NCBI GenBank assembly: GCA_012845835.1
Contig: JABAKD010000026.1
Span: forward strand, 8,316,058-8,380,057
DNA from: Undaria pinnatifida
Lineage: Eukaryota > Sar > Phaeophyceae > Laminariales > Alariaceae
Reading direction: 5' to 3'
DNA length: 64,000 nt
Made by a program: the position numbers and the translations under genes. Below are positions 80 through 64,000 of the stretch, piece after piece. A model generated the notes under the pieces. It was given only the letters and a program-made list of their open reading frames with translations, was not told the origin of the DNA and did not search any database. Position 1 is the first letter of the stretch. Every line of letters starts with the position of its first letter.

Positions 80-414
80 GCTACGAGTATTCGTAAGGAA
101 CACCTGGGACATAACACCAAACGCCAACAAGACTTCACAGACGCTCCGAGTATGCTTCACAAACGTCCGAGTTCACCACGAATACTTCGAGTATTTGGTA
201 CTGCGAGTACTCGGAGTACTGCCAGTATTGACGGCCTTAAATACTGCCAATACCGGCAGTATGAGCAGTACCGACGTCTTAAATACCGCGTGTACAGCAA
301 CTTCTCCGGCGGCCAAACACATACGGAACACACGAGCAGGAACAACCCATCGCAGGGCCCGGTGCAATCGCGATGGCTCTCTAGTACATACAAATACAGT
401 AGTGGTGCCAATAT

Positions 415-560
415 AGTGCCGGTTAAGTAATGCGGGTCGCCCGCTATAATGCCTGTGAAATCGTTTGGCATAAATGGGACCAACATGTATGGCAGTAAGC
501 GAAGTAATCCCGGTTGACGCTACCGTATGGTGCCGGTATTTTCGGCTAGCACACACCGGC
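415..560 (+). repeat. Interspersed repeat, GGCACTATAG family (copy 1)
   Basis: Contains the family signature: a GCCGGTTAAGT segment, a CCCGCTATAATGCC segment, then GTGAAATCGTTTGGCA followed by AATGGGAC. Related copies lie near 1590, 3400, 12990, 25630 and in a cluster at 28045-28445. I see no coding capacity. The inverted CCGGCACTATAG motifs suggest a MITE-like element, but ends and target-site duplications were not resolved. Confidence 0.45.
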
Positions 561-1186
561 GCAGCAGTAGAGAGACCACTACTGCATGTGCATTGTTGGT
601 ACAATGTATCACATATGATCAAAACACCGAAAACAATCAGGGAGCCACGAATAAACAAAGTTTTCGTTAGCGTGCCACTTACTTGGAGCTAGAGCGCCGC
701 AAAGCCTTACTTTGTTACTTTCAAAACTACCACGCCACCACAGCGCAAAAAAAAAGAACAACCACAAAAGCGCACGTACACACGCCAAGATTCCATGCCA
801 GCATGCCAGCACTTCTTGTGGAAGGAAATAAAACTGTTCGCGTAAATGAAACAACCGAGAGGAAACATCAGCTGAATAAACATGACACGTCTTCAAAATA
901 CCCATTTGTATGCAATTTAACTTTAATGTACACCAGGTAGTAATGGCAGATTTACGAGGTGATACTTCGTACTCTGTAAGCACATACCAGGAATATGTAC
1001 CTGGTATACCAGACTGCAGATACATCGGACCGAAGTATATCAGACGACTACGAAAAACACCATAAACACCAAGTACAGCATGATGCGACAATATTGTGAT
1101 CGTGTGATACAACATAAGTTCAGCAGCACCTTTCCAAGACGGGGAGGATGGTAAGGTCGCCGCGAAGAAACACCAACACACTGGCA

Positions 1187-1320
1187 CTCAATGATATATA
1201 CGCGCACCACGTATGGTTCGCTCTGTTTTTTCCCTGGGGCATTCTTTCACACCAGAGTGACTGGAGCCTGTCCTGTGACCACGGCCTTGATCATGCGAGT
1301 TAATCCGAGAACAACAACCC
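1187..1320 (+). repeat. SINE-like repeat B (copy 1, partial)
   Basis: Shares the segment CTGGAGCCTGTCCTGTGACC and the following GATCATGCGAGTTAA with copies at 6082 and 30285 (+) and at 1866-2050 (-). The opposite-strand copy continues through the same ATATATAC and CCCTGGGG blocks. No protein is encoded. Confidence 0.5.
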
Positions 1321-1589
1321 ACCGCAGGCCTCCAACCGTAGCCAACCCCCATGACAAAAGCAAGCCCAATAATAATCTTACGTCAAAACGCCTCCGTTTG
1401 CAACGAGACCTTAAGACCCCAAGGTCACCGGGCGCATACGATCGTACGTCGAAGCCTGGTATGATAATATCACGTGGATCGTTTCTGACAGCGCGCGCGG
1501 CCTCGAAGAGAGCAAGAAAAGTTCTTGGGGGAGAGACTTGAACCATCTGAAGATGACGATGCCACATCTACTAAACAGCAGTAGTGTTC

Positions 1590-1756
1590 CCTATATAATG
1601 CCGGTTGCGCAGCGCCGGTTGCCGTTAAAAAGTAGTCACAGTGTCTGCGGAATCGCTTGGCATCGCGGATGTGATTCCGCAGACCTGGTGGTATGCGGAG
1701 TAGTGCCGGCTGCCGATATATAAGTGCCGATATATAAGTGCCGATATATAAGTGCC
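1590..1756 (+). repeat. GGCACTATAG-family repeat with a 17-bp triplication
   Basis: Carries the family signature (TATAATGCCGGTTGC, GCGGAATCGCTTGGCA). Its right end contains three tandem copies of the 17-mer CCGATATATAAGTG(CCG) at about 1708-1756, and then runs straight into the TTG microsatellite. Confidence 0.45.
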
Positions 1757-1757
1757 G

Positions 1758-1868
<111 letters not shown>

Positions 1869-2050
1869 CTCCACATGAACTCGCATAATCAAGTCCGTGG
1901 TGACAGGACTGGCTCCAGTCACTCTTGAGCTGAGGAATACCCCAGGGGAAAAACACAAACAAACCGAAGGTGATACACGTATATATCACAGCTGACGCAA
2001 TCCATGCCTCCACCAGAAACATATAAAAGTGAAATCGGGAGTCAGCCTAC
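1869..2050 (-). repeat. SINE-like repeat B (copy 2)
   Basis: Reverse-complement match to 1187-1320: the CTGGAGCCAGTCCTGTCACC block, the CCCTGGGG/TTTCCC block and the GTATATATCACAG end are all present. Its 3' end, in minus-strand sense, is the (CAA)n tract. Confidence 0.5.
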
Positions 2051-2059
2051 GATGTGCAA

Positions 2060-5000
2060 GGTCCATACCGGTGCATACGTCTCACTACTCGCGCCTGGAA
2101 AACCGACTATACCGCTTGCCACCCAAGAAGGACTACCACGTATATATTGCACGTAGTACCTATCACTACGCGTACGCATGACAGACACAAGTCAACTGGA
2201 AAGAAGAAACAAAGAGAAGAAAAGATAAAAGGAAATAAAAGAAAAGACAAGAAAGCGAAAAAACGAAAAAGGAAAGGAGAGAAAAGAAAAATATTTCCGA
2301 CTGGAACATACCGGCGCTATAGAAGGAACACTATTAATAGCATGGGCGGAAAGACCAGATTAATGTGAGGAACACGCATTGTTGAACGTGTTCTCCATCT
2401 TTTTTCCATCCCGTCCGCTATCTTCGCCCTCTTTCTTTCTCCTTCTCTCTAGACGTACCTCAGTTCCGGGGCCACTAAACAGGCTCTGCCCCCCCCTCCC
2501 CACAACGGTACGCGCCTTCATTTTTATGTATAACCTATATCGTAATCGCAACACATCATATACCGGTGAAAACGATCAACCTGGTAATCGGTTTCGTAGA
2601 AACATGCCGCGCCCACAGGGGCACGAGACGAAATCCGATTGATATCAACAAAAACCATACCGCGCACATGAACAAAAATACTTGAACGTAGTATGGACAG
2701 CACGCAGAACGCGACACAACCAGAAGGGACAAATTTATATTTTATAAAAATATTTTCAGGACGTCAGCTGTGAGTTGGACGATTTTCGGGTCAATACTCA
2801 TCTTTACAAGCTGTTCCGCGAGGCCCATCATTATTAGAGCTCGATCAGGCTACGACAAAACCACGAAATCAGAGGTACTCTTTTCGCTACGTTGTACATG
2901 AAACGGAAGAACCGCATCCCTGGTTTGGGGCGGAAACTACGTGTGGAAACGAAGTGTAGAATAAGCTTTGCATAGGTAGAAGGGTAGACGTCAATCAGCA
3001 AGGGCGGTCAAAGCAGGGTTTATGGTTGCTCCCAGTACCACATAGTGTCTCTATTGAGGAGACCGGGTGTGATAAAAGCAGGAATAACCAGAAGGAAGAC
3101 ATTTACTTGTGTTCTGCGAGCCCTGCCGTTATTAGAGCTCGTCAGGTTACGACAAAACCATATCAAGGGTACTCTTTTCGATATGTTACCAGGGTACACA
3201 AAATAGAAGAACTGCATCACCACATAGCTTGTCTATATACGAGACCGGGTGTGCAGGATGTCAACGAGTGGAAAGAACAGTTTAACGTGAAGTACACACA
3301 AGCACACACACAAGTGAGGGTCGGGGGTCGGGGAGCAGCGCCTCCAACAGGAGCTACGGTAGCACCGTCCTCTTATTATCAGATAGTTACGAGTACGTAG
3401 CGGCCCCTCTATAGCGCTGGTTGGGTATTGTCGGTTTCCCGTTATAGTGCCTGTGTAATAAATAGGTTGGAACGTTGGCACAGAGGAGGACAAACCAGTA
3501 TTAATAGTGGGAGTATACGGAGTAGTGCTGGTTGCCGCCATAGCGCCAGAATTTCCGTCCGACACGCTCCGGCACTATAGAGGCACCATGCATCAATGCA
3601 TCTCCGCGAGCAAGTCGGCGAGTTTCCCGTCGATTGGCAACCAACCCCACCTCGGCTTGCATCTCGTATCAATCAGATCACAGCACCATATCGTACCTGC
3701 ATAGCGGCCTTCCAAGGGTCCACTCCATCGATCTCCGGTTCCGGCTCAGACTCATGCATCTTTTCATCTGAAGCTGAGTATGCCACAGCCTGGGCCATGG
3801 CGACCAGCGTCCACGTATGAGATGTGGCTCCTCTCTCGTCTGTTCTGCTCGGCTGGTTGGTCACAGGCAGGACTGCTGCTGTAGAGTGAAGTATGGGTAG
3901 GGGGTGGGTCGAGTTTCAAGTCAGACTGGAAGGTGGGGGTAGGGAGGGGTTGGTTGTTCCTACCCTGTACAACAAGCGGTGCTTGTTTGCTTTAGCTTTT
4001 TAGCTGTAGCTTTTGTCGCTGCTGCTGCTGTTGCTGTCGCCGTGCGACGTTCCGAGACTCGCCTAATTCTACTCAAGTAGGAGGCGCGTCCATACTCTAG
4101 TATTCTTCGCATTAAACTGACATTTCTGTGTGTACAGCAGCAGTAGTGCAGTAGTGCCCGTATCAAATACGATACCACTATCTCGTGAATGCAGGCAGAG
4201 ATCGCTCTGCTAGAGTGGCCTTTTGATTTGTGATGACGAGGGCAGGCAATGACGACCGCACTCCGACCTTACCAGGATCAGGATCACGATGGCCCAGCCC
4301 AGCGGGACGCTACGTCAAGTTCGAAAGGAATGGATGCATTGAGAGAGAACTCTACCTACCGACAAAAGGAACACATCAGATTGGACTCTACCATTTTCTG
4401 AACGATATCGCTGCGCGGGCCTTCCCGACCTCTCTCTGCGGGTATCCACTAGAAAGCCGAAGCCGAAGCTTACATTTTCCATCAAACCGCCGCGTAGACC
4501 AGACCATTTTTTTCATACTAAAAACAACTGCAAAAAAATATGATTTAGTCGTTCAATTCAATCGTTACACCAAGATAGGCACGTTTTGTTGTGAAGACAT
4601 CACACACAATAGTTCGTGCCCAACGGTACCCTGCGCAGGCAACCGACATAACGACGCCCGGTCACCACCAAAATCGTTGCACCCACATGCAAGGGTAGGT
4701 GTATCAGGGGCTTAGGATAGCCCTCGCCCGGACGAGGAAGGCGTGGCTGCCTCGCCCCGCACCCTTGGGAAAACTGCCTCGTCGACTATTTGGGGAATTA
4801 TCTACCTCTTAGTCAATCACACTCGTCGGGTGACTTGCAAATCCAAATTACTTCATCTCGACCTCGGCGACTACGACGCCCGGCGGCCTTAGATGAAAGA
4901 GGACGCACGCCGACAGCAGGCTGCCGACGCACACCTAGCTCGTTCGTAGAAGCTATCACTTGTCCTTCACCGGCGGCTAATTCCGAGACCCTGTCTCGCT

Positions 5001-60919: not shown

Positions 60920-61465
60920 TGTGACTACAGGTTAGTAGGGCCCAGACAAGCAGTAGGCTCTCACCAGCAACCAGCAAATGTAATAGAGTGTCCAGTATAG
61001 CTGGAAATAGATTCGGTAAGATAGCCCGCAGAGTCACGGTCTATTGGCCACAAGAAGATTCTCTTAAACGGAATATTCTGAGTGAAGAAGATAACCCGTA
61101 GAATCTAGCTAGCTTATACCACAAGAGCGTTCTCGGTAATGGAACGTTCCTCCTCTGGACAAGATAGATAGATGTAAGCGCATTAAGCGCTCATAGGAAT
61201 ATAGAACATCTAGGAGAACGTTCCTTGTACGTTCCATAGGTCAAGGTCCAGCAGAGAGCACAGCAGCAATACTGGGCGGAAGCGGATTCCGTGAGCCTCA
61301 CCCCACCCCCATGCTCTCATTCCTCCTTTCCTGCCTCCTCGAGCTTCTCATAGCTCAACGCCAACAATAAGAAATCTACAAAGAAGAACCGGTGCTGTCT
61401 CCAAGCGAAGCTGATATCCCTGCGTCCCTTCCCTCACACCTTCCCGGCACCACGACTATTAGCCA
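60920..61465 (+). repeat. 5' LTR of the NADAR retroelement (candidate)
   Basis: 546 bp beginning TGTGACTACAGG and ending ATTAGCCA, followed by a 2-nt spacer and the primer binding site. The left edge coincides with the break in repeat G. The 3' LTR is outside the window, so the boundaries rest on TG...CA ends, spacing and the host repeat. Confidence 0.65.
61054..61223. promoter_or_regulatory. Cluster of four heat-shock-type GAAnnTTC dyads in the LTR
   Basis: GAAGATTC (61054-61061), GAATATTC (61071-61078), GAACGTTC (61142-61149) and GAACGTTC (61216-61223), with additional half-sites (GTGAAGAAG at 61083, GTACGTTCC near 61228). Inverted GAA units two bases apart are the core of heat-shock elements bound by HSF. 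About 0.1 dyad is expected by chance in 550 bp. Confidence 0.5.
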
Positions 61466-61467
61466 AT

Positions 61468-61525
61468 TGGCGTCGTCGGCAGGACTCGAACCTGCGCGTG
61501 AAATCACAATGGGTTTCCAATCCAT
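61468..61525 (+). mobile_element. Extended primer binding site complementary to tRNA-Ser(GGA)
   Basis: The first 18 nt, TGGCGTCGTCGGCAGGAC, are a standard LTR-element primer site. The complementarity to tRNA-Ser goes on: T arm (GCAGG-TTCGAGT-CCTGC), the long variable arm of a class II tRNA, and the anticodon loop TTGGAAA with anticodon GGA, ending within the anticodon stem (58 nt). No D arm or 5' acceptor strand follows, so it is not a tRNA gene. Confidence 0.8.
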
Positions 61526-62598
61526 GCCGGGGCAACAACGGACAATCCAACAAGAGACGCCACAACAACAGCCGCTCCTACGGCAACGGCAACCGACAGT
61601 CGCAAGGGCAGCAGTTTCAACAACGGCGCGCCGCGGCCGCGACGCAGTCGACAGCCATGACGGTACACGACCCGGCGACCAATGCCCTCGCAGCCGCCGC
61701 CCCGTCGAACTTGCGGATCGACAACAACGACGCCACCAACCCGAACCAACGGCAACCGGGCACCTTTCGCACCAACTGACGAGCCGGTGGTGGAGCAACT
61801 GCAGCATCTCCGCCAACAGCACTTGCTGCGAACACCGGATCTCAAGACGCCCGAGTACACCACGTGAAACACGCCTCCCTGCCCCCTGCTCCCCTACGCA
61901 CCCCCCCTACCCCAGCCCAATCCCCGACCACTTGCTCAAGCACTGATCCTCTTGCTCCAGTGATAGCCTTGAGGTGTGGGCGGGAGGAGGACAAGACGTC
62001 GAGCCCTACCGGGATGCTCCACTCGACATCTTCCGGCGATGTGCAACGCTACGTGCCGACTATCGCTGATACTCCAGACATTGCTAACCTGGGCGAAGTC
62101 TCGACAATTACGACTACCAGCGGTTCCGGTTCACACGAAACGGCTGTTTCGCCTACCGGGCCATCGCCCCCTGAGCCTGCCTCGACCCCAGATTGGCGAC
62201 TGCCCACCCGCTCGTCACAGGACGTGCGCTTTTTCAGTGACAACGTTGCGCCCGCGAACGACGGGTCCCCACTCGCTGCCACGGTGTTGACAGCACCACT
62301 GCCCCTGAGCTCGAGGGACAGTCCCGTCCTACACACGGAAGATTCGCAATCACAGTCGACCAGGACATGCTCTGAGCACCCTGCCCCATCATCCTCGCCG
62401 GCTTCACGCATTGCGTGGACTCGGGCGACAGGATCTACATGCCCTAGCGAGTACAGCCCTGCTCTCCAAACGCCTGAAGCCAGGATCCCCTAGGGTATCC
62501 CCGCCCAGCGTACGCGCCACCGCGTGGACCCTCCCGGTACCTCGGCTTTGCCGAACAATTCCCCCGCGAACTCGGACGTTCAAGTCAGCACCGCCTGA
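61526..62598 (+). pseudogene. N-terminal part of the retroelement polyprotein (gag-like region, interrupted)
   Basis: The same frame as the NADAR-protease segment is open except for TGA at 61777, TAG at 62491 and TGA at 62596. It encodes an Asn/Gln/Arg-rich segment (RRHNNSRSYGNGNRQ) followed by long Ser/Thr/Pro-rich disorder. No capsid fold or CCHC zinc knuckle is visible. A short frame +2 segment (TDEPVVEQLQHLRQQHLL, near 61775-61830) could indicate a frameshift. Expected to be gag-derived from its position only. Confidence 0.5.
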
Positions 62599-63906
62599 TC
62601 GGATCTGACTCCACCCCCGACAACGCCAACCGGCAATGTCACCAACAATCGCCGACCCCCACCCCCGCCACCCCCATCAGACGAATCACCCTCGCCAGAA
62701 CACGACACCGCGGACCCTCCGGATTCTTTCCATTTCTTCTGGAACTCCTCGTCCGTCTTCTCACAGTGGTACCTGTGCGACATCGAGTACGAGAGCGTCC
62801 CGTATAACTGCGCCGAACAGATGATGGCGCAGAAGGTTGCGCTCTTCGGGGACATCGCGACAGAGCTTCGCATCCGAACCACCTTTGACCCCGCCGACCA
62901 AAAATCTCTTGGACGCACCGTGTCCGGCTTCGACCAGGAGTGTTGGGAGCGACATCGCTACGACATCGTCCTCAACACCAACTTCTGCAAGTTCAACAAG
63001 AACCCGGACCTACAACGAGCGCTCGAGGCAACTGGCGAGAAACACATCGATGAGGCCAGCCCGTACGACCTCGTCTGGGGCATCGGCTACAGGGCTGACC
63101 ACCCGCTCGCCTGCGAAAGGGCGCGTTGGCGCGGTCGGAACCTGTTAGGCCGGGTACTTATGGACGTCCGCGAAAGCCTTCGCTCGAGCCTCAACACCAC
63201 AAGCGCCCCCCTCCCCTGCTCTCGTGAGCCAACATCCACTCTCACCGACTCCAGCCGGGTCTTCCCCACCGCCGATGGCATCCACGAGACAGGCCCCTCC
63301 CCCCTTCAGAAAACGCCGGGTACCCCGCTTGAACTTCTTCTGCCACCCTCCACCCCGGACGCTTTGCCCAGCAGCCACTTCGCTCAGGTCTCCGCCGTCG
63401 ATGCCGCTGCCAACCTATACCCTGCTGCCACCGCGCCGACGATACCAGAACATGGACCATGCCTTACAAGCGGCATTCTAACAGTCGAAGACGCGTCATT
63501 CACGACCGAGGTACTAGTCCACAGCGGCCCTACCGCCGCCAAACGCGGCAAACTCGTGGCGCTGCTCGATACAGGCTCCCCTCAGTCGTTCATCACCGCC
63601 GCGGCCGTGGAACAACTGAAGGCCTTCCGGTCAGCAACGGATGAGTGCGAACGACATAATTCACCTCGTTCATGGGGAGGTTTCGGAACCTCGACTCCCC
63701 TCTCCACCTCCGTTTCCACCCGCTTAAGCATCCAGTTTAAGCACTACCAAACTCCCACCGCCGCCCTGGCAGTATGGGCTTGCGTCGTTCCGGCAGGAAC
63801 TAGGCAGCACCCCATCCTCTTGGGGCGAGATAGCTGGATGCGCTTCGAGCGACGCTCGTATACCACGCTCCCGCGACAGCCCCAGCTGCCACACCAGCCC
63901 CCCTAA
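62599..63906 (+). CDS. NADAR domain-retropepsin polyprotein segment
   Basis: A 435-codon open segment. Residues 44-195: NADAR/YbiA-like domain (FHFFW, FSQWY, YNCAEQMMAQKVALFGD, LGRTVSGFD, W in ECWERH, NFCKFNKNPDLQRAL, EASPYDLVWGIGY, WRGRNLLGRVLMDVRESL). The family's Glu (62815), Trp (62944) and Asp (63067) are present. Known members act on N-glycosidic bonds of ADP-ribose or NAD-related substrates. Residues about 290-435: aspartic protease-like domain with LLDTGSPQSF (DTGS, 63568-63579) and HPILLGRDSW, as in retroelement proteases. A Pro/Ser-rich linker joins them. No ATG lies between the TGA at 62596 and the NADAR start, so it must be read from upstream. Stop TAA at 63904. Confidence 0.8.
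   Translation, partial: SDLTPPPTTPTGNVTNNRRPPPPPPPSDESPSPEHDTADPPDSFHFFWNSSSVFSQWYLCDIEYESVPYNCAEQMMAQKVALFGDIATELRIRTTFDPADQKSLGRTVSGFDQECWERHRYDIVLNTNFCKFNKNPDLQRALEATGEKHIDEASPYDLVWGIGYRADHPLACERARWRGRNLLGRVLMDVRESLRSSLNTTSAPLPCSREPTSTLTDSSRVFPTADGIHETGPSPLQKTPGTPLELLLPPSTPDALPSSHFAQVSAVDAAANLYPAATAPTIPEHGPCLTSGILTVEDASFTTEVLVHSGPTAAKRGKLVALLDTGSPQSFITAAAVEQLKAFRSATDECERHNSPRSWGGFGTSTPLSTSVSTRLSIQFKHYQTPTAALAVWACVVPAGTRQHPILLGRDSWMRFERRSYTTLPRQPQLPHQPP
62728..63183 (+). other. NADAR domain
   Basis: The complete domain boundaries within the polyprotein, from FHFFWNSSS to MDVRESLRSS. All conserved blocks of the family occur in order and without indels, so the domain itself is intact in this copy. 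Confidence 0.82.
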
Positions 63907-64000
63907 CCGACCCGTGGCGAACTTTCTCTGCACCACCACGGCCCCAACGGGGCCTTCGCCTTCATTACCGACGACCGATACACCGACGACGTCTACCACC
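63460..64000 (+). mobile_element. Retropepsin-like domain and continuation out of the window
   Basis: After the TAA at 63904 the same frame stays open to the window end (PTRGELSLHHHGPNGAFAFI...). The polyprotein therefore probably continued into reverse transcriptase beyond 64000. Whether TAA is decay or a recoded stop cannot be told here. Confidence 0.55.

What the first reader, a model, noticed from the sequence alone, without database searches (positions are those of the whole stretch)
61468..64000. LTR retroelement whose polyprotein carries a NADAR domain upstream of its protease
Seen: primer site, then one frame encoding disorder, a complete NADAR (YbiA-like) domain and a DTGS retropepsin-like domain. 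Known: NADAR proteins act on ADP-ribose or NAD-related N-glycosidic linkages, and some reverse DNA ADP-ribosylation in toxin-antitoxin systems. Inference: the element may carry it to counter ADP-ribosylation-based defence, or to process NAD-capped or ADP-ribosylated nucleic acid in the particle. I do not know of an established description of a NADAR in this position, but I could not search.
Basis: partly seen in the sequence, partly recalled or inferred. Interest (0 to 1): 0.9.

Follow-up and report, generated by a model that had tools for sequence, protein, structure and literature searches.

The report
NADAR-carrying Gypsy retrotransposon in wakame kelp
The end of this window holds a decayed copy of a kelp jumping gene whose enzyme protein carries a NADAR domain, a kind of enzyme that can erase ADP-ribose marks; the same arrangement has already been published for a related brown alga, but what the domain does there is untested.

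Summary
Window 62599-63906 is one open frame with a complete NADAR domain (Pfam E 2.9e-43) and a retropepsin-like fold, inside a 5' LTR. The genome is almost certainly Undaria pinnatifida: one contig length equals that assembly's published scaffold N50 exactly. The window copy is dead: most of gag, RT and RNase H are deleted and its frame has stops. Relatives keep open pol frames: of 150 NADAR places scored in the genome, 22 lie in open frames of 2000-2473 aa. Order there: Gag with a zinc knuckle, in-frame TGA, then Pol = disordered lead, NADAR, protease, RT, RNase H, integrase. Active-site residues are kept; signs of purifying selection are moderate. [quoted passage not shown] Not seen in the passages of that paper that I read: the in-frame TGA before Pol, and an intron-bearing host NADAR gene as a second possible donor. 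The biochemical role stays open.

The parts
60974..61460 (+). 5' LTR (aligned part)
   Evidence: 95.9% over 487 bp to L021:4072-4557, the 3' LTR; about 90% to the 3' LTRs of two B copies, L039 and L041
61468..61525 (+). 58-nt stretch antisense to the 3' part of tRNA-Ser(GGA) including CCA; its first 11 nt (61468-61478) equal the primer-binding site of the A copy
   Evidence: 58-nt exact match to the tRNA in L067; A-copy primer site matches for 11 nt then diverges; CANN-TGGCGTCGTCG 5276 sites against 60 for the reversed control; 25-nt tRNA stretch 40 sites
61526..61776 (+). remnant of the 3' end of gag (most of gag deleted)
   Evidence: blastn to L030 from position 3750 on, while the L030 gag frame begins at 1233
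61777..61779 (+). TGA at the gag/pol boundary, in the NADAR frame
   Evidence: same boundary in L030 and, in subfamily A, in 15 of 20 loci by motif
61780..62733 (+). low-complexity lead of Pol; in-frame stops at 62491-62493 and 62596-62598 in this copy
   Evidence: the homologous stretch is open in L028 and L030
62734..63183 (+). NADAR domain, Glu at the position of E125 of 8bau (YbiA type)
   Evidence: one residue shorter than most copies between the E43 and K50 positions, as in L082 and L085
63502..63858 (+). retropepsin-like protease domain; DTGS at 63568-63579
   Evidence: AlphaFold model and Foldseek; no Pfam match
63907..64000 (+). start of the protease-RT linker; beyond the window RT and RNase H are deleted (by position), integrase region and 3' LTR present in L021
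   Evidence: L021 aligns to L031 at 1-181, then 184-3577 after a jump of about 2.9 kb; Pfam was not run on L021

Best explanation
Identity (about 0.95): a decayed copy of a Ty3/Gypsy LTR retrotransposon of the brown-algal NADAR-bearing kind, in Undaria pinnatifida. Mechanism (about 0.42): Gag is made from the first frame; some ribosomes read through the TGA and make Gag-Pol, so NADAR is packed at the low dose of protease, RT and integrase. In the particle or the early replication complex NADAR acts as an N-glycosidase that removes ADP-ribose from guanine (or a like linkage) of element RNA, primer tRNA or cDNA and so keeps the template copyable, much as the dUTPase of some retroviruses keeps uracil out. 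Shown: architecture, kept active-site residues, moderate signs of selection. Inferred: read-through, packaging, substrate and benefit.
For: NADAR in one frame with protease, RT, RNase H and integrase in copies with an open pol, read in pieces. TGA in the NADAR frame at the end of gag in 15 of 20 loci by motif, in a 16th (L007) by eye, four loci lacking the junction; also in B copy L030. Gag has one CCHC knuckle in 4 of 4 gag frames looked at. Positions of E43, K50 and E125 of 8bau kept in 39 of 41 own copies each and in 53, 52 and 50 of 54 rows (53 database proteins and the window frame). pN/pS among 15 open copies 0.22 for NADAR and 0.76 for the lead beside it. Subfamilies A and B keep 48% NADAR identity with synonymous sites saturated. 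Known NADARs remove ADP-ribose from guanine in DNA (PMC11543638 section 12; PMC11125620 discussion).
Against: No call tests activity, read-through or packaging. No DarT match in the genome; one short PARP match (53 positions, 33.6 bits, over the cut-off) and a Tpt1-like gene in three pieces leave the source of the mark unknown. Contacts differ: Y84 is F in 41 of 41, D86 is kept in 0 of 41. Segregating codons, NADAR 8 syn:5 non against lead 18:40, give only p 0.056; with 28 A copies, older ones included, NADAR shows 33 syn:48 non; in three A copies NADAR rests on 2 and 2 changes and linker+protease has 0 syn:4 non, and the B pair has NADAR 1 syn:2 non. Linker+protease gives 0.72 in the set where NADAR gives 0.22, so the measure is noisy. 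Of five further copies looked at, only one has both LTRs whole in the pieces fetched.
Confidence: 0.5

Rival explanations
1. NADAR serves RNA metabolism: it acts on small ADP-ribose derivatives or processes the RNA intermediate (RNA repair, end clean-up), rather than removing base adducts.
For: PMC9503650 (passages) argues that viral NADARs may prefer soluble ADPr derivatives or RNA-processing by-products; PMC12477816 suggests processing of the RNA intermediate; in nematodes the NADAR protein SNA-3 is needed for trans-splicing and mutation of its conserved NADAR residues impairs it (PMC9303266, passages). The host has a Tpt1-like gene, which can yield ADPr derivatives of RNA ends (recalled).
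Against: NADARs tested on nucleic acid act on guanine-linked ADPr, but YbiA is also an N-glycosidase of riboflavin intermediates (passage), so substrate range is open; no call discriminates.
Confidence: 0.28
2. The domain has become a non-catalytic binder of nucleic acid or ADP-ribose that helps Gag-Pol assembly or tRNA placement.
For: Some ligand-contact positions vary (D86, R93).
Against: E43, K50, K75, R79, W89, E125, D130 and W133 are each kept in 39 to 41 of 41 own copies.
Confidence: 0.15
3. NADAR is a passenger, kept for chain length or by chance.
For: The lead beside it is near neutral (pN/pS 0.76; 0.93), and the selection tests on NADAR are few in changes.
Against: Held across subfamilies A and B with saturated synonymous change and found in many other database proteins of the kind.
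Confidence: 0.05
4. A host NADAR exon lies beside the element by chance.
For: Undaria has a host NADAR gene.
Against: That gene is on another contig (C20) and its NADAR is split over three exons; 22 of 150 scored NADARs sit in one frame of at least 2000 aa.
Confidence: 0.01

Closest known systems
NADAR-bearing Gypsy lineage of Ectocarpus (Gypsy-12_Ec32 and kin; PMC12477816, 2025)
   Same: [quoted passage not shown] that lineage's example has a C-terminal chromodomain, and a chromodomain-like stretch is seen here below the cut-off
   Different: Another brown alga (kelp). Added here: the in-frame TGA between gag and pol, the host gene, copy-level data. The sequence of Gypsy-12_Ec32 itself was not compared.
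Tx1 LINEs of Crassostrea gigas with NADAR in ORF1 (reported in PMC12477816)
   Same: Retroelement with a NADAR domain
   Different: Non-LTR element, divergent NADAR, other ORF; known to me from that paper only
DarT-NADAR and YarT-YbiA toxin-antitoxin pairs (PMC11543638, PMC11125620)
   Same: Same domain; catalytic Glu and Lys kept; Glu at the E125 position as in YbiA
   Different: No partner ADP-ribosyltransferase found in the element pieces; no DarT match in the genome
Viral polyproteins with embedded NADAR (nidoviruses, hepe-like viruses, picornaviruses; PMC9503650)
   Same: NADAR embedded in a polyprotein with the polymerase
   Different: RNA viruses without reverse transcription; known from passages only
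Nematode SNA-3 (PMC9303266)
   Same: Eukaryotic NADAR protein tied to RNA
   Different: Host trans-splicing factor with three NADAR domains, no retroelement; known from passages only
Retroviral dUTPase in Pol or Gag-Pro (recalled)
   Same: A nucleic-acid-quality enzyme carried in a retroelement polyprotein
   Different: Unrelated fold and substrate

Membership tests
Ty3/Gypsy LTR retrotransposon | Two LTRs and a tRNA primer-binding site | tested here: met
   Window copy: LTR pair 95.9%. One A copy: 267-bp LTRs, identical, with TGGCGTCGTCG after the 5' one. In the other four copies the 5' LTR was absent, partial or inverted in the pieces fetched.
Ty3/Gypsy LTR retrotransposon | Pol order protease, RT, RNase H, integrase | tested here: met
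   RVT_1, RT_RNaseH, Integrase_H2C2, rve in that order in L025; protease by fold in the window frame
Ty3/Gypsy LTR retrotransposon | RT falls in the Gypsy clade of a tree | not tested
   Only Pfam matches and domain order
NADAR superfamily, YbiA subfamily | Whole NADAR domain with the conserved Glu and Lys, and Glu rather than Asp or His at the E125 position | tested here: met
   E43, K50 and E125 positions each kept in 39 of 41 own copies; window copy has all three but one residue less between the first two
NADAR superfamily, YbiA subfamily | De-ADP-ribosylation or N-glycosidase activity | not testable with these tools
   needs an assay
[quoted passage not shown]
Ectocarpus NADAR-Gypsy lineage | C-terminal chromodomain | tested here: inconclusive
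   Chromo E 0.06 and 0.11, both under the curated cut-off
Ectocarpus NADAR-Gypsy lineage | Same RT lineage as Gypsy-12_Ec32 | not tested
   Its sequence was not at hand. Two of the 73 hits are named Ectocarpus; their listed domains are RVT_1 and RNase H without NADAR.
DarT-NADAR toxin-antitoxin system | Adjacent ADP-ribosyltransferase toxin | tested here: not met
   No DarT match in the genome (control rings in 1 of 14 genomes); no such Pfam match in the element pieces scanned

The most novel reading that the evidence does not exclude
Brown-algal Gypsy elements carry an active nucleic-acid de-ADP-ribosylase in Gag-Pol that protects their RNA, primer tRNA or cDNA from host ADP-ribosylation: a retroelement counterpart of the counter-defence proposed for phage NADARs, implying an undescribed nucleic-acid ADP-ribosylation defence in brown algae.
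Probability: 0.3. Interest if true: 0.85.

Novelty: new member of a known kind. Interest (0 to 1): 0.42.

Why it matters
The roles of NADARs outside DarT operons and of NADARs across eukaryotes are called unclear in PMC11125620; the nematode trans-splicing factor SNA-3 is one eukaryotic case with a process attached (PMC9303266, passages). A domain kept inside an abundant retrotransposon, probably made at enzyme dose with RT, ties another eukaryotic NADAR to a defined process and makes its substrate testable on the purified domain. If it erases ADP-ribose from nucleic acid, brown algae should be making that mark.

Tried and rejected
Host exon beside the element: rejected. tRNA gene in the window: none.

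Donor of the NADAR, host gene against bacteria: not decided. Best identities of the subfamily A NADAR are 62.3% to algal standalone proteins, 61.7% to the Undaria host gene and 61.0% to named bacterial ones; subfamily B (51.7 against 53.7) and the two database elements compared (56.2 against 60.3; 58.2 against 60.0) lean to bacteria, L091 (49.3 against 47.3) to algae. First tree, 111 rows: the element label needs 7 changes, at least 4 forced by well-supported branches. I then dropped two long-branch rows (P0088, P0141) and relabelled five unnamed rows as element fragments; the label then needs 2 changes and, with the Undaria host gene added, 3. Elements plus algal standalone form one side of a branch with SH-aLRT 82; in the free tree they do not, though the tree that holds them together scores 19.3 log units better, and holding elements alone together scores 12.2 and 11.5 better. 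The AU p values (0.75, 0.753, 0.635) mean only that these groupings are not rejected; the quick search missed better trees and the topology is weak. Unnamed standalone rows had been thinned to every third plus seven chosen.

Lead-in motif: my first motif fitted 5 of 5 algal, 4 of 51 element and 0 of 103 other rows; a form widened after looking fits 5, 39 and 0, so it is post hoc. In one search seven minus-strand loci were read on the wrong strand; corrected. In one search the 80 database rows included many without NADAR; one search repeats the count on whole NADAR domains. Read-through is inferred from one stop codon at a fixed place; no downstream structure and no peptide was looked for. LTR dating was not done for want of a rate; no target-site duplication was assigned for the window copy.
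Full report
What is there. The last 3 kb of the window holds an LTR, a short primer site, a remnant of gag, and a frame (62599-63906) with NADAR and a protease-like domain. NADAR is complete: profile positions 1-163, E 2.9e-43. By sequence the one solved relative at E up to 0.01 was 8bau, the ADP-ribose-bound NADAR of Phytophthora nicotianae; the profile of 30 relatives adds E. coli YbiA 2b3w at E up to 0.1. The AlphaFold model has mean pLDDT 65 and pTM 0.44; ten-residue blocks score 69-87 over most of NADAR (its first 25 residues 41-58) and 75-96 over most of the protease part. It matches 8bau and 2b3w and, in its second half, retroviral and DDI1 proteases.

Which organism. The window is G000:C33:8316058-8380057 of a 511,146,479-base genome. 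Contig C34 is 16,510,065 bases. PMC7058681 (passages) gives scaffold N50 16,510,065, length 511,280,173 and GC 50.14% for Undaria pinnatifida. The identical number makes the identification close to certain.

The window copy is dead. It belongs to subfamily B (about 91% to L028 and L030 over 1.6 kb). Most of gag is gone, in-frame stops lie at 62491-62493 and 62596-62598, NADAR is one residue short between the E43 and K50 positions, and about 2.9 kb, by position RT and RNase H, are missing beyond the window; the 3' LTR is L021:4072-4557.

Relatives with open pol. The own-genome search scored 150 of 1454 candidates; 150 of 150 passed the NADAR cut-off, and by my count of that listing 22 of 150 lie in open frames of 2000-2473 aa. 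I fetched five of these in pieces (three A, two B). Pol holds NADAR, RVT_1, RT_RNaseH, Integrase_H2C2 and rve in that order, with DTGS between NADAR and RT. The C-terminus resembles a chromodomain below the cut-off (E 0.06 and 0.11). Gag frames run 414-938 aa in the five copies, so gag is not equally whole in them; 4 of 4 gag frames looked at hold one CCHC knuckle. One A copy has two identical 267-bp LTRs (C30, about 15.5 kb from end to end by coordinates); in the other four the 5' LTR is absent, partial or inverted in what I fetched. An open pol therefore does not mean an intact element.

Gag-Pol boundary. In L022, L024, L026 and L030 the gag frame ends in TGA and Pol follows in the same frame; in L028 gag ends in another frame. 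Among the 20 loci L001-L020, 15 have the junction motif, all 15 with TGA in the NADAR frame; L007 shows TGA at the same place with a motif one base different; L001, L011, L016 and L017 lack it. This fits termination suppression, so NADAR would be made at enzyme dose, not Gag dose. That is inference.

Active site and selection. Numbering by 8bau as in PMC11543638 (section 12 read): in 41 own copies E43, K50 and E125 are kept in 39 each, K75 39, R79 41, W89 39, D130 40, W133 39; Y84 is F in 41, D86 is kept in none, R93 is K in 31 and R in 10. The 41 are the 20 best-scoring loci, 20 chosen from lower ranks, and the window. In one search the same three are kept in 53, 52 and 50 of 54 rows (48 element proteins, five relabelled fragments and the window frame). 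Among 15 of the 20 loci with both flanks open, pN/pS is 0.22 for NADAR, 0.76 for the lead, 0.72 for linker plus protease; over all 20 NADAR gives 0.15, over 28 A copies 0.30. Three A copies in pieces give lead 0.93, NADAR 0.29 (2 and 2 changes), linker plus protease 0 synonymous and 4 replacement changes, RT+RNase H 0.13, integrase 0.11; the B pair has too few changes (NADAR 1 and 2). Segregating codons give only p 0.056 for NADAR against the lead. Between A and B NADAR keeps 48% identity with pS 0.776, saturated; the lead keeps 25%, RT+RNase H 78%. So NADAR is held, less tightly than RT.

Elsewhere. Searches, both capped at the candidates sharing most words, returned 90 relatives of the window frame and 73 of a protease-RT piece. 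Of the 73, 13 list NADAR and RVT_1 in one protein and 9 of these RNase H as well; one such cluster stands for 415 sequences. Two of the 73 are named, both Ectocarpus, neither listing NADAR; most rows carry no name, so the spread over species is unknown here.

A host NADAR gene. Five database proteins of 209-252 aa are standalone NADARs: two named Ectocarpus, one Pylaiella, one Scytosiphon, one from EukProt. In the four named ones I see by eye a Cys/His-rich stretch ahead of NADAR; P0132 lacks it and Pfam does not name it. Undaria has such a gene at C20:5683.3-5686.3 kb: the Cys/His stretch and the NADAR start in one frame that ends at GTAAGT, and two further NADAR stretches by tblastn. The element NADAR is uninterrupted. 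PMC12477816 leaves Ectocarpus out of its blastp comparison and suggests a bacterial donor; the host gene is a second candidate, but trees and identities here do not decide (details under tried and rejected).

Prior art. Listings for NADAR with retrotransposon (20 of 104 papers seen), NADAR domain (15 of 15), NADAR with brown alga (20 of 80), YbiA with Gypsy (1 of 1) and Gypsy-12_Ec32 (1 of 1), in a library of open-licence PMC papers, gave one paper that describes the arrangement: PMC12477816 (passages and part 1 of section 5). [quoted passage not shown] Subscription papers and preprints were not searched. The finding is therefore a new member of that kind.

Mechanism. NADARs hydrolyse ADP-ribosyl-guanine in DNA; YbiA is also an N-glycosidase in riboflavin metabolism and SNA-3 shows a NADAR tied to RNA splicing (passages). 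A low-dose enzyme in Gag-Pol most simply serves the nucleic acid being copied. The source of a mark is unknown: no DarT match, one short PARP match over the cut-off, a Tpt1-like gene in three pieces; six-frame searches can miss genes split by introns.

Side observation. The tract after the window's LTR is 58 nt of tRNA-Ser(GGA) antisense including CCA. The A copy's primer site matches for 11 nt only. CANN-TGGCGTCGTCG occurs 5276 times against 60 reversed, the 25-nt tRNA stretch 40 times. Of those 40, 30 were cut out: 28 of 30 carry CCA by eye, the tRNA part ends at different points, ARAGORN calls a whole tRNA in 4 of 20 scanned, two loci form a head-to-head palindrome, and 9 of 30, the window's own among them, hold a stretch like the window's LTR; the others were not checked for LTRs. 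Reading: reverse transcriptase sometimes copies on into its primer tRNA, and the window copy joins such a product to internal gag.

Noticed in passing
window 61468-61525; L049, L051, L052, L060, L064, L065, L067, L069: tRNA-Ser 3' stretches of varying length, CCA included, in loci that also hold a stretch like the window's LTR; far beyond the 11-nt primer site, up to a whole tRNA. Suggests reverse transcriptase running on into the primer tRNA.
   Followed up: partly
L042/L043 (G000:C1:448118-448212): Head-to-head palindrome of two tRNA-Ser 3' parts.
   Followed up: no
L092 160-723; L094 1085-1339 and 1609-1773 (G000:C20:5683.3-5686.3 kb): Host NADAR gene of Undaria with introns inside the domain, related to standalone proteins of Ectocarpus, Pylaiella and Scytosiphon.
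   Followed up: partly
G000:C61:8427152-8492210: Four of the seven weak matches to the Cys/His-rich part of that host gene lie in this 65-kb stretch, away from the NADAR places listed.
   Followed up: no
L038:4492 to L028:666 against L040:4423-3257: A segment of about 1.2 kb ahead of gag lies in opposite orientation in two B copies that are otherwise about 99% identical from gag on.
   Followed up: no
L032 4179-5101 and L022 4-882: 84-bp minisatellite array in the long 5' leader of a subfamily A copy.
   Followed up: no
L025 and L029, last 250 codons of pol: Chromodomain-like stretch below the Pfam cut-off, followed by what looks by eye like a Tudor/SH3-like stretch.
   Followed up: partly
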